A DNA stretch of 64,000 nucleotides from Thermococcus sp. LS1 (GTDB lineage Archaea > Methanobacteriota_B > Thermococci > Thermococcales > Thermococcaceae): the NCBI RefSeq assembly GCF_012027395.1, contig NZ_SNUJ01000002.1:62001-126000 (forward strand), read 5' to 3'. A model generated the notes under the pieces. The model made no database searches. It was not told where the DNA came from and saw only the letters and a list, made by a program, of their open reading frames with translations. Shown here piece after piece: positions 33,392-61,159 of the stretch (position 1 is its first letter; every line of letters starts with the position of its first letter). Position numbers and translations under genes: made by a program.

Positions 33392-34513
33392 TCAAAGCTC
33401 CTCAAGGTCGAGTTTAATAACTTTTCTCTCTGGCTCCTCACCGTAGTAAGTGGGCTCCTCCTCGGCGACAGCGTATGGGGAGCTAACTCCAGTAACCACG
33501 ATGAGGATCCTTATCATCTTTCCGAGCTCTTCGTCAAGCTGTATTCCCCAGATGACTTGGGCCTCCGGGTCAAGCTTGCTCGTGACGAGCTCTATTATCT
33601 GCTGGGCCTCCTCGAGCTTGACGTCGCTTCCGCTTATGCTTATGAGCGCTCCCTTGGCACCGCTTATGTCAACGTCGAGGAGCGGGCTGTTGAGTGCCTG
33701 CTGGGCAGCTTCGAGGGCCCTCTTCTCGCTGTCGCTCTCGCCAATACCTATCATCGCAACGCCGCCGTCCTTCATGACAGCCCTGACGTCGTTGAAGTCG
33801 AGGTTAACAAGTCCCGGCTTGGTGATGAGCTCGGTGATGCCTTTGACTGCCTGGACGAGTATCTCGTCAGCAACCTTGAAGGCCATGTGTATCGGCAGGT
33901 TAGGAGCGACCTCCATGAGCTTGTCGTTCGGGATGACAATAACGGTGTCGCTGTTCTTCCTGAGCCTCTCGAGACCGTACTCGGCGTTCTTTATCCTCCT
34001 GATGCCCTCGACGGTGAATGGAAGGGTAACGACTGAGACAGTGAGAGCGCCCATCTTCTTGGCTATTTCGGCAACAACTGGAGCGGCTCCAGTACCGGTT
34101 CCACCGCCGAGACCGCAGGTGATGAAGACCATGTCAGCGCCTTCAAGGGCGTCGCGAATTTCCCTCTCGCTCTCCTTGGCAGCCTCCTCGCCCATCTTGG
34201 GGTTGTTTCCTGCACCGAGACCACGGGTAAGTTCTTTACCTATGAGTATCTTTTTGTGAGCCCTAACCTTGAGAAGATCCTGAGCATCAGTGTTGATGGC
34301 GATAACCTTCGCACCCTGGATGCCGACCTGCATCATTCTGTTTATAGTGTTACAGCCGGCACCGCCAACACCAACGACATAGATCTTGGCCTGTATCTGC
34401 TCCAGAATCCTCCTAAGCTCCTCATCGATGTCGGTCTGCGGAGCCTGGGCCTCCGGGACCTTGTTAAGGTCAGCGGAGGTTCTTTCGATAGCGTCTTCAA
34501 TCAGCTTCAGCAT
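33392..34513 (-). CDS. ftsZ: Cell division protein FtsZ
   Basis: A 373-residue tubulin-fold GTPase. [15 protein letters not shown] is loop T1, [12 protein letters not shown] (residues about 134-145) is the tubulin signature, and [13 protein letters not shown] is the T7 loop with both catalytic Asp. It polymerises at mid-cell. Start: ATG at 34513, 4 nt after GGTGA; the extra 12 codons upstream contain the ribosome-binding site. TATA TTTATATA near 34564-34572. It leads the secE-spt5-ribosomal cluster and gives a direct comparison for the FtsZ-like gene at 59585. Confidence 0.97.
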
Positions 34514-56947: not shown

Positions 56948-57160
56948 TCAGACGTACTTAAACTCTTCCTCTTTTTCGTCCTTCTCTTTAATCTTCCAGA
57001 AGAGTTTTCCGTCCTTCTGATAACTCTCGACCTTACCTTGCTCAAGGAAGCGGAGCAGGTAGCGTCTCACTTCCATCTTTGGGAGCTTGGTAATCTCCGC
57101 TATTTCCTCGATGGTCTTTGGACCTTCCTCCAGGGCCTTCATAACCCTGACGTTCTTCAT
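56948..57160 (-). CDS. Small winged-helix protein
   Basis: A 70-residue DNA-binding-type protein with a helix-turn-helix (KTIEEIAEITKLPKMEVRRY) and a wing (KVESYQKDGKLFWKI). It overlaps the previous gene by 4 nt (ATGA) behind GGAGGGAGGAG. Third gene of a minus-strand operon with the zinc-ribbon and arginase-fold genes. No partner known; it may regulate its own operon. Confidence 0.8.
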   Translation of the reverse strand: MKNVRVMKALEEGPKTIEEIAEITKLPKMEVRRYLLRFLEQGKVESYQKDGKLFWKIKEKDEKEEEFKYV

Positions 57161-57486
57161 TCTCCTCCCTCCAGTTTCCTGTATCTCTCCAACAGTTCGA
57201 TTATCTTCTCCATAACTCTTAAGTGTTTTTCAAGTTCGGCAAGGTCCTCGGGCATGGAATTTGCCAGTTCGTTAAGCTTCTCCATGAGCCTCTCCTCGAT
57301 GCCTTCCATCTCGGCCTTCCTCTGCTTTGCTCTGTGCTCGCATATGGGGCAGAAAACCCTTCCGTCCTTTTCAAAGAGTGGAGAGCCACACTTGGGGCAG
57401 TGTCTGTCGAGCATCTTTGCCCCGGAAAGCATCAGCGGCATGAGGACGGTTCTCATTTCCTCCTCCGTGGGTCCCTTCAGTGCCAT
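57157..57486 (-). CDS. Zinc-ribbon protein of the Sjogren's syndrome/scleroderma autoantigen 1 family
   Basis: A 109-residue protein with a CPKCGSPLFEKDGRVFCPICEH zinc ribbon at about residues 30-49 and a long C-terminal coiled helix (LAELEKHLRVMEKIIELLER). The human homolog is autoantigen p27; the archaeal function is not known. The ATG at 57486 follows GGTGAT 3 nt away and starts 4 nt past the preceding stop. Confidence 0.85.
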   Translation of the reverse strand: MALKGPTEEEMRTVLMPLMLSGAKMLDRHCPKCGSPLFEKDGRVFCPICEHRAKQRKAEMEGIEERLMEKLNELANSMPEDLAELEKHLRVMEKIIELLERYRKLEGGE

Positions 57487-57490
57487 CCCA

Positions 57491-58216
57491 TCACCCCATT
57501 AGCAGCTGGAAGACCTCAACGAAGGCCTTCTTCCCGAGGCGGGAGCGCCTTATCCTGTCAGATACCTCGGCTATGTCAAAGGCAACTATCTTGAAGTTCC
57601 TCTTTATTTTCTCGAGAATTTCCAAGAGTTCTTCAAGGCTCAGCTCCCCGTGCTGGAAGCGGGCTATCCTGTACTCTGGCTTCAGGACGTCCATGTCGAC
57701 AGTCAGGTAAATCTCATCGCCGAGATACTTCTTAGTCTCAGCCAGTATCTCGTCGAGCGAGTTGGTCTGTAAGTTCTTGTATGCCCTCCACTTCCCCCGG
57801 ACCTTCCTGCTCCTTAGCAAAGCCGGGAAGATTTTAACCCTCCTCGTCCAGAGCTGGGTTCTCTCCGTTGTCGGGATCATTAAAACCGGGGCAAGAACAA
57901 CGGCGCGGTTAAGGATGTGCTCCTCGAGGGCATAAGCGAGCCACGAGCCGTGGTCAAGGTAGTCGTGCATCAGATCGGTATGAGCGTCGAGACTTATCAG
58001 AGAGCCCGGCTTGAGCTTCTCCACGATGCCATATGTGGCAAGATGATCCCCTATTATGTAGGCCTTGTCCTGGGGGATCCTTTCAGCCAGAAGTTCGACT
58101 CTGCTCGATTCGACTATCATGTAGTCCTCTATGAGCTTGTTCCTTCTAAGAAGTTGCAGAACGTAGAGAACACCGTCGCGGTTGGGCTTCTCGCCGAAGG
58201 GGATGAACGTTACCAT
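57491..58216 (-). CDS. Arginase/agmatinase-fold (ureohydrolase) protein
   Basis: A 241-residue protein with the metal-binding motifs of the ureohydrolase superfamily: IIGDHLATYG, SLDAHTDLMHDYLDHGS, LTVDMDVL and VAFDIAEVSD. All Mn-ligating Asp/His positions can be matched, but the segment that recognises guanidino substrates is shortened, so the substrate is uncertain: agmatine or a deacetylase substrate. First gene of its operon; TATA TTTAAAAG near 58247; ATG 58216 after GGTGG. Confidence 0.82.
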   Translation of the reverse strand: MVTFIPFGEKPNRDGVLYVLQLLRRNKLIEDYMIVESSRVELLAERIPQDKAYIIGDHLATYGIVEKLKPGSLISLDAHTDLMHDYLDHGSWLAYALEEHILNRAVVLAPVLMIPTTERTQLWTRRVKIFPALLRSRKVRGKWRAYKNLQTNSLDEILAETKKYLGDEIYLTVDMDVLKPEYRIARFQHGELSLEELLEILEKIKRNFKIVAFDIAEVSDRIRRSRLGKKAFVEVFQLLMG

Positions 58217-58354: not shown

Positions 58355-59575
58355 ATGATACTCCAGGTTGCCCTTGACTTAACTGACATTGAGCAGGCAA
58401 TTTCTATCGCTGAGAAGGCCGCTAAAGGTGGCGCTCACTGGCTTGAGGTTGGAACTCCCCTCATCAAGAAGGAAGGCATGCGCGCCGTTGAGCTTCTCAA
58501 GAGGCGCTTCCCGGACAGGAAGATCGTCGCGGACCTGAAGACCATGGACACCGGTGCCCTGGAAGTCGAGATGGCAGCTAGGCACGGTGCCGATGTTGTT
58601 TCTATCCTCGGTGTTGCCGACGACAAGACCATCAAGGATGCCGTCGACGTCGCCAGGAGATATGGAATCCGGATCATGGTAGATTTAATCGGCGTTAAGG
58701 ACAAGGTCAAGCGCGCCAAGGAACTTGAGAAGATGGGCGTTCACTACATCCTTGTCCACACGGGCATAGACGAGCAGGTCCAGGGCAAGAGCCCGCTGGA
58801 GGATCTTGAGAAAGTCGTCAAGGCCGTCAGAGTTCCTGTAGCTGTTGCCGGCGGCTTGAACCTCGAGACCATCCCGAAGGTCATAGAGCTCGGTGCGACG
58901 ATAATCATAGTTGGCGGAGCCATAACCAAGGCGAAGGACCCTGAGGACGTCACTAGGAATATAATCGATCTCTTCTGGGGCGAGTACATGATGACCATCA
59001 GGAAGGCCATGACTGATATCCTGGAGCACATCAACCAAGTTGCTGAGAGCATCAAGCTCGAGCAGGTCAGGGGCTTTGTCGATGCCATGATCGGAGCCAA
59101 CAAGATATTCATCTACGGTGCCGGAAGGAGCGGTTTGGTCGGAAAGGCCTTCGCAATGAGGCTCATGCACCTCGACTTCAACGTCTATGTCGTCGGTGAG
59201 ACAATAACCCCTGCCTTCGAGCCGGGAGACCTTCTCATAGCCATCAGCGGTTCAGGCGAGACCAAGAGCATCGTCGATGCCGCGGAAATAGCCAAGAGGC
59301 AGGGTGGAAAGGTCGTAGCAATAACCTCCTATGCCAACTCGACCCTTGGAAAGCTCTCCGATGTTGTCGTTGAGATACCTGGAAGAACGAAAGCTGACAT
59401 ACCGACGGACTATATCGCCAGGCAGATGCTCACCAAGTACAAGTGGATAGCGCCGATGGGCACTCTCTTCGAGGACTCCACCATGATATTCCTTGACGGC
59501 ATAATAGCTCTCCTAATGGCCACCTTCCAGAAGACCGAAAAGGATATGAAGAAGAAGCATGCGACCCTTGAGTAA
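58355..59575 (+). CDS. Fused 3-hexulose-6-phosphate synthase / 6-phospho-3-hexuloisomerase
   Basis: A 406-residue bifunctional enzyme of the ribulose monophosphate pathway. Residues 1-210 are HPS (LQVALDLTDIEQAISIAEKA, then IVADLKTMDTGALEVEMAAR), residues about 215-406 are PHI, a SIS-domain isomerase (FIYGAGRSGLVGKAFAMRLM, AISGSGETKSIVDAA). Archaea use it in reverse to make ribulose 5-phosphate from fructose 6-phosphate. Thermococcales often have the fusion. First gene of a plus-strand operon reaching 62598. ATG at 58355 after GGAGGCGAGG; TATA CTTTAAAAA near 58304. Confidence 0.96.
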   Translation: MILQVALDLTDIEQAISIAEKAAKGGAHWLEVGTPLIKKEGMRAVELLKRRFPDRKIVADLKTMDTGALEVEMAARHGADVVSILGVADDKTIKDAVDVARRYGIRIMVDLIGVKDKVKRAKELEKMGVHYILVHTGIDEQVQGKSPLEDLEKVVKAVRVPVAVAGGLNLETIPKVIELGATIIIVGGAITKAKDPEDVTRNIIDLFWGEYMMTIRKAMTDILEHINQVAESIKLEQVRGFVDAMIGANKIFIYGAGRSGLVGKAFAMRLMHLDFNVYVVGETITPAFEPGDLLIAISGSGETKSIVDAAEIAKRQGGKVVAITSYANSTLGKLSDVVVEIPGRTKADIPTDYIARQMLTKYKWIAPMGTLFEDSTMIFLDGIIALLMATFQKTEKDMKKKHATLE

Positions 59576-59584
59576 GGGGTCGCC

Positions 59585-60337
59585 ATGCCGTCTTTTACCC
59601 ATCTTTTTGTAGGAATAGGGAGCACGGGAGCGAGGATAGTCAACAGCATACGCGCAGATGGAATCGTAAAGGTAACTGTCAATCCAGCCTACTACCTCCT
59701 TCCCCGCTCCGATAAGTATGAGGAGCGCCTCAGGAACTTCTTCTCCAGCCTTCCGAAGAACACTTTCCTGTGGCTCGTTTTCGATGACAAGGAGGTAAAC
59801 CACGAACTCATGGAGATAATCGTTGAGAGTGCTCCGAGCGATACCATAAAGCTCGCCTATGTCCTGACCCCAAGAAAGGAGCTGGTTACCGGAAAGAAGC
59901 CCGAATGGGCCGAGCCGTTTGAGACTGTGTTCTATGATTCCCTCTGGGACTTCCTCAGGGAGAGCGATTCCTTATCACTAGCCTTCAGCAGGGCCTCCGA
60001 GAACATCGCCGAGATGTTCTCCAAGCTCTACTACTACCTTGAGACCCAGATGCTGGTTAACATAGACTATGCAGACCTGTTCAACATGATACGCGGAGGG
60101 AACGTTGGGATCCTGCGCCTCCTTGACCGAGTAGACTTCAACTGGCACTGGGGCATCTGGGACCGGGGTCTAATTGGAATTCTCGTTGGCAGGGAGTTCC
60201 CGCTCAAGGACGCTCACGAGATACTCGGCCGCTTCCAAGATATACTTAAGGAGAAAGACATAATATGGGGCGTCGTTATGGACGACGAGCTGACGAGGGA
60301 GGTCGAAATACTGGCGTTGCTCGTTAAGAGGTGGTAG
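59585..60337 (+). CDS. Divergent FtsZ-fold protein without the GTP-binding signature
   Basis: A 250-residue protein alignable with FtsZ of this same window. The T1-like loop LFVGIGSTGARIVNSI (residues 7-22) resembles [15 protein letters not shown]. Residues 157-165 read LVNIDYADL, aligned without gaps to Fts[10 protein letters not shown], so the T7-loop Asp pair is kept (D161, D164). The end, IIWGVVMDDELTREVEIL, matches Fts[19 protein letters not shown]. The GGGTGTG tubulin signature is replaced by WLVFDDKEVNHEL, and the protein is about 120 residues shorter than FtsZ. Nine nt after HPS-PHI, one nt before a HAD gene. I infer a pseudo-FtsZ that may interact with FtsZ; no nucleotide binding is predicted. 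Confidence 0.8.
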   Translation: MPSFTHLFVGIGSTGARIVNSIRADGIVKVTVNPAYYLLPRSDKYEERLRNFFSSLPKNTFLWLVFDDKEVNHELMEIIVESAPSDTIKLAYVLTPRKELVTGKKPEWAEPFETVFYDSLWDFLRESDSLSLAFSRASENIAEMFSKLYYYLETQMLVNIDYADLFNMIRGGNVGILRLLDRVDFNWHWGIWDRGLIGILVGREFPLKDAHEILGRFQDILKEKDIIWGVVMDDELTREVEILALLVKRW

Positions 60338-60338
60338 A

Positions 60339-60983
60339 ATGGAGGCCATTCTCTTCGATATCGATGGGACGATACTCACTGAGGAGCCTCTGATAATGCT
60401 CTTCCTTCCACAGGTCTACGATAAGCTCTCTAGAAAGCTTGGAATCAGCAAGGACGAGGCCAGGGAGAGGTTCCTCGCAGAGATACTCGGCAGGAGGGAC
60501 AGTTACGACTGGCACGATTGGAACTTCTTTTTCAAACTGTTTGACCTCGATTTGAAATACGAGGAGCTTCTCGAGAGGTATCCCCACAAACTTCAGGTTT
60601 ATCCGGACACCATTCCTACCCTGGAATGGCTGAGGGATACCGGCTATAAGCTTGGTGTTGTGACGAGCGGGCCGAAATATCAGAGGCTCAAGCTTAAGCT
60701 CGCCGGTCTTCTGGATTACTTCGACGTCGTCATTACGCGGGACGACGTCAACGCCATAAAACCCGAGCCTAAAATCTTCCTCTACACCATTGAAATGCTC
60801 GGAGTCGAGCCCGGCGAAGCCGTTATGGTCGGCGACTCCCTCAGCCAAGACGTTTATGGCGCCAAGAGCGTCGGTATGACCGCAGTGTGGATAAACCGTA
60901 ATGGTGATATGGGCTACAACATGGCCGATTACGAGATTAGAACCCTTTACGAGCTTAGAAAGGTTTTAGGTGGTGAAAGATGA
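60339..60983 (+). CDS. HAD-superfamily phosphatase
   Basis: A 214-residue HAD hydrolase with catalytic nucleophile D7 in AILFDIDGTIL, motif II LGVVTSGPK, motif III lysine in DDVNAIKPEPKIF and motif IV VMVGDSLSQDVYGAK. Such enzymes act on sugar phosphates or nucleotides; substrate unknown. Adjacent stop and start suggest coupling with the FtsZ-like gene. GGTGGTAG precedes the ATG at 60339. Confidence 0.9.
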   Translation: MEAILFDIDGTILTEEPLIMLFLPQVYDKLSRKLGISKDEARERFLAEILGRRDSYDWHDWNFFFKLFDLDLKYEELLERYPHKLQVYPDTIPTLEWLRDTGYKLGVVTSGPKYQRLKLKLAGLLDYFDVVITRDDVNAIKPEPKIFLYTIEMLGVEPGEAVMVGDSLSQDVYGAKSVGMTAVWINRNGDMGYNMADYEIRTLYELRKVLGGER

Positions 60984-61159
60984 AGGAAATATTCAATGCT
61001 AAGGGCCTTTTTGTTAAGTATACCGAAAAGAAGGTGAAGCTCGAGAACGGCGACGAACTGACCCACAGGAGCGAAGAACCGACGGAGCTCTGGTGGAGGC
61101 TGAAGGAAGCTGTAAAGGGCAAGAAGGTTAGAATCGTCGTCTATGAGATCGAGGAATGA
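60980..61159 (+). CDS. Small conserved-looking protein, 59 residues
   Basis: Starts MKEIFNAKGLFVKYTEKKVK and continues to EIEE*. It overlaps the HAD gene by 4 nt (ATGA) behind AGGTGGTGAAAG, and the next gene begins 4 nt after its stop. Charged, no cysteines, one beta/alpha domain. The tight coupling supports coding. Family not recognised. Confidence 0.72.
   Translation: MKEIFNAKGLFVKYTEKKVKLENGDELTHRSEEPTELWWRLKEAVKGKKVRIVVYEIEE

What the first reader, a model, noticed from the sequence alone, without database searches (positions are those of the whole stretch)
59585..60337. A short FtsZ-fold protein that keeps the T7 aspartates but has lost the GTP-binding signature
Read beside the FtsZ at 33392-34513, this 250-aa protein aligns without gaps at LVNIDYADL (Fts[10 protein letters not shown]) and at IIWGVVMDDELTREV (Fts[16 protein letters not shown]), and begins with a T1-like GIGSTG. 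The GGGTGTG loop is replaced by residues that cannot hold GTP. A subunit that offers the catalytic T7 loop without binding GTP itself could stimulate hydrolysis in, cap or sever FtsZ filaments. It is in an operon with HPS-PHI, a HAD phosphatase and a small protein, so a non-division role is also possible.
Basis: partly seen in the sequence, partly recalled or inferred. Interest (0 to 1): 0.85.

Follow-up and report, generated by a model that had tools for sequence, protein, structure and literature searches.

The report
GTP-site-less FtsZ paralogue in Thermococcales
Every well-assembled Thermococcales genome checked carries a small, degenerate copy of the cell-division filament protein FtsZ that has lost the GTP-binding loop but keeps the three residues with which one FtsZ subunit makes its neighbour split GTP, so it may control FtsZ filaments rather than build them.

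Summary
ORF 59585-60337 (+, 250 aa) is a real, purifying-selected gene whose model has an FtsZ fold (AlphaFold2 pTM 0.86; all 50 best PDB matches are FtsZ, E to 8e-12; a second model from a distant orthologue agrees). Profiles match FtsZ by sequence alone (E 1e-10 to Thermococcales FtsZ2). It lacks the T4 loop GGGTGTG, the T3 loop, the T2 Asp, the H5 Arg, the guanine-contact Asp, helix H9 and both FtsZ tails. The T7 catalytic set N159/D161/D164 is invariant in 41/41 orthologues that differ down to 43-48% identity. It is present in 89 of 94 Thermococcales genomes (the other five are drafts that lack or truncate the adjoining HPS-PHI gene) and was not found elsewhere in the phylum. It lies between HPS-PHI and a HAD phosphatase in all 24 loci examined, and most likely descends from the order's FtsZ2. 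Best explanation: a non-polymerising 'half-active-site' FtsZ paralogue that docks through T7 on the GTP face of an FtsZ subunit and stimulates hydrolysis or caps that end. Fold, homology and motif loss are shown; the partner and activity are inferred. I found no description of it in the paper library.

The parts
59585..60337 (+). pseudo-FtsZ gene (250 aa + stop), the finding
   Evidence: ORF and translation; dN/dS about 0.11-0.12 against two 90% identical orthologues; orthologues; fold
59612..59629 (+). T1-like loop, residues 10-15 GIGSTG; G10, G12, G15 invariant in the family and in FtsZ1/FtsZ2
59783..59803 (+). place of the T4 loop (GGGTGTG in FtsZ), residues 67-73 DDKEVNH; N72 invariant, acidic residue(s) at 67-68 in most members
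   Evidence: alignment
60053..60079 (+). T7 loop, residues 157-165 LVNIDYADL; N159, D161, A163, D164 invariant in 41/41; equivalents of SaFtsZ N208, D210 and D213 for N159, D161, D164
   Evidence: roles of the SaFtsZ residues from PMC8936486
60122..60163 (+). residues 180-193 LDRVDFNWHWGIWD, which stand in place of FtsZ helix H9; F185, W187, W189, G190, W192 invariant; possible family-specific surface
60251..60286 (+). strand S9 region, residues 223-234 EKDIIWGVVMDD, matching FtsZ xVIWGxxLDEE
60326..60337 (+). last codons AAG AGG TGG TAG: C-terminal KRW; the DNA also reads GAGGTG, a Shine-Dalgarno-like motif for the next gene, so the invariance of W250 is confounded
   Evidence: sequence
58355..59575 (+). 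HPS-PHI (hexulose-phosphate synthase/isomerase fusion), adjacent upstream on the same strand
   Evidence: Pfam PF00215 + PF01380; synteny
60339..60983 (+). HAD phosphatase, starts 1 base after the pseudo-FtsZ stop
   Evidence: Pfam PF00702; downstream neighbour in 24/24 loci
60980..61159 (+).
   Evidence: translation, position; conservation not tested
33392..34513 (-). FtsZ1 of this genome (canonical; candidate partner)

Best explanation
The gene encodes a pseudo-GTPase FtsZ paralogue. SHOWN: it has the FtsZ fold (models), is homologous to FtsZ and groups with Thermococcales FtsZ2, is fixed in the order, is under purifying selection, has lost the phosphate- and guanine-binding motifs and the FtsZ tails, and keeps the complete T7 catalytic set (N159, D161, D164) without exception. 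INFERRED: it cannot be an inner subunit of a normal GTP-driven filament, because it lacks the GTP-bearing face, but its T7 face can dock on the GTP face of a real FtsZ subunit (FtsZ2 first, FtsZ1 second). There it would supply the two aspartates that position the attacking water, hydrolyse that subunit's GTP, and block further contact on that face. It would so act as a GTPase-activating cap at the nucleotide-exposing end of filaments, and as a competitor for GTP-loaded monomers. Sitting in the HPS-PHI operon, it could tie FtsZ dynamics to pentose (nucleotide precursor) supply; that last step is speculative.
For: Whole-chain FtsZ fold in two models built on different orthologues. Sequence homology to FtsZ at E 1e-10 and 5e-7. 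N159/D161/D164 in 41/41 sequences while the family drifts to 43-48% identity. T7 is the most FtsZ-like 9-residue stretch of the second half: 59% mean identity to FtsZ2 and 56% to FtsZ1, against 18% and 16% outside T7 and S9. Only 13 positions are identical in every sampled pseudo-FtsZ and every sampled Thermococcales FtsZ1/FtsZ2: three are T1 glycines and three are the T7 catalytic residues. In FtsZ those T7 residues act on the neighbour's GTP, not the subunit's own (PMC8936486). General knowledge: beta-tubulin, whose T7 faces a GTP that is not hydrolysed, lacks the acidic T7 residue that alpha-tubulin keeps, so retention suggests use. It is found in 89/94 genomes, nearly always single copy, alongside FtsZ1, FtsZ2 and CetZ and SepF.
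Against: No interaction, localisation or GTPase data exist; complex modelling was not possible with these tools. The T7 residues could be kept for folding or cation binding. Conservation is not confined to the T7 side: S6 (FETVFYDS), the former pocket and the WHWGxW segment are equally or more conserved. The gene neighbourhood is metabolic, with no division gene. In bacteria, mutations of the top interface are reported as non-toxic compared with bottom-interface mutations (PMC8936486), so such a subunit need not be a strong regulator. The AlphaFold confidence around T7 is modest (block 151-160 mean 67).
Confidence: 0.45

Rival explanations
1. A metabolic sensor or regulatory subunit: the FtsZ scaffold has been recruited to the HPS-PHI/HAD operon and now binds a sugar phosphate or nucleoside in the remodelled pocket, acting on these enzymes and not on FtsZ.
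For: HPS-PHI and HAD flank it in all 24 loci; an extra gene (phosphoglycerate-mutase-like in the one read) stands between it and HPS-PHI in three. Former pocket loops carry invariant residues G10/G12/G15, N72, P96, E99-L100, F116-S119.
Against: Does not explain why N-x-D-x-x-D of T7 is kept without exception. Gene adjacency can reflect shared expression only.
Confidence: 0.22
2. Structural relic: the T7 aspartates are kept only because the loop between H7 and H8 needs them for folding or metal binding in a hyperthermophile; the protein has some unrelated function.
For: The T7 loop of FtsZ coordinates a cation in the tense state (PMC8936486). Many other residues in the domain are equally invariant.
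Against: Exactly the three residues with catalytic or transition-state roles are kept, with hydrophobic neighbours free to vary (L/V, V/I, I/V, Y/L/M/F, L/F).
Confidence: 0.18
3. An unconventional polymer subunit: it assembles with itself or co-assembles within FtsZ2 filaments without GTP, or with another nucleotide, as a structural element.
For: The fold keeps both domains; the T1 glycines are intact; the invariant WHWGxW segment could be a new contact.
Against: No phosphate loop, no T3, shortened nucleotide-binding domain, no H9, no linker or C-terminal tail of the kind FtsZ uses for anchoring. A subunit without a GTP-bearing top face would end the strand in the FtsZ geometry.
Confidence: 0.1

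Closest known systems
FtsZ2 of Thermococcales (archaeal FtsZ, TIGR00065)
   Same: Fold, H7-T7-C-terminal sequence, T7 catalytic residues, IxWG strand; the tree groups them with support 100/99.8
   Different: FtsZ2 is 402-425 aa in the sampled genomes with G[GN]GTGTG, T3, H9, linker and tail; the present protein is about 250 aa and lacks all of these; its connecting branch is about 6.5 changes per site, so the grouping is provisional
CetZ (archaeal tubulin-like family; PMC9856176)
   Same: Tubulin-superfamily fold; about one CetZ per Thermococcales genome, as with this gene
   Different: CetZ keeps GGGTGAG; profile comparison is not significant (hhalign probability 1.1%)
FtsZl1 and FtsZl2 (Makarova & Koonin 2010, PMC2875224)
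   Same: Divergent FtsZ-like families outside classical FtsZ
   Different: Both keep the GGGTG(S/T)G loop; in FtsZl1 it is the T6-H7 part that cannot be recognised, the opposite pattern to this protein
ARC3 of plant chloroplasts
   Same: An FtsZ-derived chimera that binds FtsZ1 and FtsZ2 and inhibits ring assembly, a functional analogue of MinC (PMC5855766); no MinC_C was found in eight Thermococcales genomes
   Different: ARC3 carries a C-terminal MORN domain; no direct sequence comparison was made; the resemblance is of principle only
MciZ and SulA (bacterial FtsZ cappers)
   Same: Small proteins that block one longitudinal face of FtsZ
   Different: Unrelated folds (general knowledge); MciZ binds the bottom interface of FtsZ (PMC8936486), whereas the protein here would bind the GTP face

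Membership tests
FtsZ (TIGR00065 / PF00091 + PF12327) | Two-domain FtsZ fold | tested here: met
   Predicted models only: Foldseek E 8e-12 and 2e-12, TM-score on the query 0.61-0.76
FtsZ (TIGR00065 / PF00091 + PF12327) | Profile score above the curated cut-off | tested here: not met
   TIGR00065 19.4 bits against 295.2; PF12327 14.9 against 27; PF00091 no match
FtsZ (TIGR00065 / PF00091 + PF12327) | T4 GTP-binding signature GGGTG[TS]G | tested here: not met
   Absent in all 41 orthologues
FtsZ (TIGR00065 / PF00091 + PF12327) | T7 synergy loop NxDxxD | tested here: met
   41/41
FtsZ (TIGR00065 / PF00091 + PF12327) | GTP binding, GTPase activity and polymerisation | not testable with these tools
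   Needs protein
CetZ | Significant profile similarity to CetZ | tested here: not met
   hhalign probability 1.1%, E 0.047, 39 columns
FtsZl1/FtsZl2 | GGGTG(S/T)G loop retained | tested here: not met
ARC3-type FtsZ-derived regulator | Binds FtsZ and inhibits ring assembly | not testable with these tools
   Needs interaction assay
ARC3-type FtsZ-derived regulator | C-terminal MORN regulatory domain | tested here: not met
   Chain ends after S10 at residue 250; no MORN match in Pfam

The most novel reading that the evidence does not exclude
A lineage-wide, dedicated 'half-active-site' GTPase activator for FtsZ: a paralogue that keeps only the catalytic T7 half of the inter-subunit active site and so acts in trans as a cap and hydrolysis trigger, with a remodelled pocket that reads a pentose or nucleotide metabolite made by the adjoining HPS-PHI and thus couples division to nucleotide supply.
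Probability: 0.12. Interest if true: 0.92.

Novelty: new variant of a known kind. Interest (0 to 1): 0.7.

Why it matters
I found no description in the literature at hand of an archaeal FtsZ paralogue with the T7 catalytic face and no GTP site, fixed across a whole order that includes genetically tractable species. FtsZ needs two subunits to make one active site; this looks like an evolved separation of the two halves. It would offer a test of how filament ends are controlled in archaea, where few FtsZ regulators beyond SepF are known, and a natural counterpart to plant ARC3, an FtsZ-derived regulator that stands in for MinC.

Tried and rejected
Chance similarity: rejected. CetZ membership: rejected. 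FtsZl1/FtsZl2: rejected. Truncated or decaying FtsZ pseudogene: rejected; intact copy across the order, dN/dS about 0.11-0.12. Real loss in five genomes: not supported; in those drafts HPS-PHI is also missing or cut at a contig end. Viral or plasmid origin: no relatives in viral contigs or PHROGs, and only an annotated ftsZ on one haloarchaeal plasmid. HPS-PHI fusion in one genome (662-codon frame, L035): a one-base longer A run relative to a near-identical genome, probably a sequencing error, not used as evidence. Origin from FtsZ1: the tree with pseudo-FtsZ + FtsZ1 held together is borderline rejected (p-AU 0.044); whether the gene arose inside or beside Thermococcales FtsZ2 is unresolved (p-AU 0.133). 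The tally '92 of 94' printed counts FtsZ hits too; my count of orthologues from its rows is 89. No paper was found on the gene; TK0476 as its T. kodakarensis locus tag is my guess from memory that TK0475 is the HPS-PHI gene and was not verified. No search outside the window's phylum with the profile was possible, so absence elsewhere is not shown.

Full report
OBSERVATION. The ORF at 59585-60337 (+) encodes 250 aa. The FtsZ used for comparison lies at 33392-34513 on the minus strand and is canonical. Pfam and NCBIfam recognise the protein only weakly (FtsZ_C E 0.035; TIGR00065 E 5e-4, 19 of the needed 295 bits); 27 of 41 family members give a sub-threshold TIGR00065 match, best 6e-7. A search with the single sequence in 94 Thermococcales genomes also hits a second FtsZ at residues about 117-246, best E 1.5e-7. 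The 41-member profile hits it at 2.5e-10 and M. jannaschii FtsZ in the PDB at 5e-7.

FOLD. AlphaFold2 on the 41-member alignment gives pLDDT 87.8 and pTM 0.86. All 50 listed PDB matches are FtsZ, E from 8e-12, probability 1.00, TM-score on the query 0.61-0.76 over the whole chain. A second model, from a 48%-identical orthologue with a different alignment, agrees (pLDDT 86.1, pTM 0.87, top hits FtsZ at 2e-12). Order of elements: S1-T1-H1-S2-H2-(no S3/T3)-S4-(T4 replaced)-H4-S5-S6-H6-H7-T7-H8-S7-(no H9)-S8-H10-S9-S10 (element names assigned by me).

WHAT IS LOST AND KEPT. Residue roles below come from S. aureus FtsZ (PMC8936486), where T1-T4 hold the phosphates, T5 the ribose and T6 the guanine, and where the T7 loop of the next subunit supplies N208, D210 and D213. 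Lost here: GGGTGTG (now DDKEVNH-like), the T3 loop with G72, D46 of T2 (now mostly A, T, S or G), R143 of H5, and the guanine-side Asp at the start of H7 (now mostly S or A; that role is from general knowledge). Also missing are H9, the N-terminal extension, and the linker and tail. Kept: T1 glycines G10, G12, G15; P96; and N159, D161 and D164 in 41/41 sequences. Of the 13 positions identical in every sampled pseudo-FtsZ and every sampled Thermococcales FtsZ1 and FtsZ2, three are T1 glycines and three are the T7 catalytic residues. T7 is the most FtsZ-like stretch of the second half (59% and 56% mean identity to FtsZ2 and FtsZ1, against 18% and 16% outside T7 and S9). The former pocket also carries invariant residues (N72, E99, D118), and the stretch in place of H9 carries the signature W187-x-W189-G190-x-W192. 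So the protein is not merely decaying in its first half. The final KRW codons double as a Shine-Dalgarno-like GAGGTG for the HAD gene one base downstream, so the invariant last Trp says little.

DISTRIBUTION AND DESCENT. Orthologues occur in 89 of 94 Thermococcales genomes, all six genera, nearly always as a single copy. In the five others, all drafts, the HPS-PHI gene that precedes it is missing or ends at a contig edge, so the locus is simply not assembled. In the 21 further genomes of the phylum only genuine FtsZ, or nothing, is hit. The family diverges more (mean pairwise identity 54% in 11 genomes) than FtsZ1 (85%), CetZ (84%) or FtsZ2 (68%) in matching genomes, yet dN/dS between close species is about 0.11-0.12. 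On the S6-S10 region it groups with Thermococcales FtsZ2 (support 100/99.8); grouping with FtsZ1 is borderline rejected (p-AU 0.044). The connecting branch is about 6.5 changes per site, so the exact attachment is uncertain. The most likely history is duplication of FtsZ2 at or before the root of the order, followed by loss of the GTP site.

CONTEXT. HPS-PHI, pseudo-FtsZ and HAD phosphatase keep the same order and strand in all 24 loci examined across the six genera; in three, an extra gene (phosphoglycerate-mutase-like in the one read) is inserted after HPS-PHI. Gaps are mostly short (here 9 bases and 1 base), so co-transcription is likely. The window's genome has FtsZ1, FtsZ2 next to a MinD/ParA-type gene, CetZ and SepF. 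MinC_C was not found in eight Thermococcales genomes.

MECHANISM. In FtsZ the active site is shared: the bottom subunit brings GTP, the top subunit's T7 brings the aspartates. This protein has only the second half. General knowledge from tubulin is instructive: beta-tubulin, whose T7 faces a GTP that is not hydrolysed, lacks the acid that alpha-tubulin keeps. Total retention here argues that T7 still meets a hydrolysable GTP, which must belong to another protein; FtsZ2 and FtsZ1 are the obvious candidates. The prediction is a T7-first docking on the exposed nucleotide face of filament ends or GTP-bound monomers, stimulation of hydrolysis, and a block to extension on that face. Bacterial filaments are reported to shrink from the nucleotide-exposing end, and top-interface mutations, the nearest engineered analogue, are reported as non-toxic compared with bottom-interface ones. 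A shrinking-end cap or trimmer is therefore more likely than a potent global inhibitor. Severing has no specific support. The partner and the activity are inferred; nothing here demonstrates them.

COMPARISON. Not FtsZ by defining features (no GTP signature, far below cut-offs), not CetZ, not FtsZl1 or FtsZl2, which keep GGGTG(S/T)G. The best functional parallel is ARC3 of chloroplasts, an FtsZ-derived inhibitor that is a functional analogue of MinC. No paper in the library describes this gene; the library is not complete, and annotation elsewhere could not be checked.

VERDICT. Observation confirmed; interpretation as an FtsZ-fold pseudo-GTPase supported; the proposed action on FtsZ is plausible and testable but unproven.

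Noticed in passing
L056 865-2124 (-); L074-L080 compared with L071-L073: FtsZ2 of most sampled Thermococcales has T4 = GMGNGTGTG (one glycine to asparagine), while three sampled FtsZ2 keep GGGTGTG; FtsZ2 also evolves much faster than FtsZ1 (68% against 85% mean identity). In L056 it is followed by a MinD/ParA-like gene.
   Followed up: partly
L035, junction upstream of 6638 on the - strand: A one-base longer A run relative to L036 puts HPS-PHI and pseudo-FtsZ in one 662-codon frame; probably a sequencing error.
   Followed up: partly
L040 4906-5607 (+): A phosphoglycerate-mutase-like gene is inserted between HPS-PHI and pseudo-FtsZ; L041 and L042 have a gap of the same size.
   Followed up: no
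L110 and L111: A third, very divergent FtsZ in a sister family of the class; the L110 match has four in-frame stops and L111 sits on a long branch (1.46).
   Followed up: no
G069:C2:360947-361698 (-): One genome carries a second pseudo-FtsZ copy broken into two frames with a TGA stop, besides its intact copy.
   Followed up: no
window 60980-61159 (+): 59-aa ORF overlapping the end of the HAD gene; not characterised.
   Followed up: no
window 57491-58216 (-) and 57157-57486 (-): Arginase-family protein and a zinc-ribbon protein (Auto_anti-p27), divergently oriented beside HPS-PHI in many Thermococcales loci.
   Followed up: no
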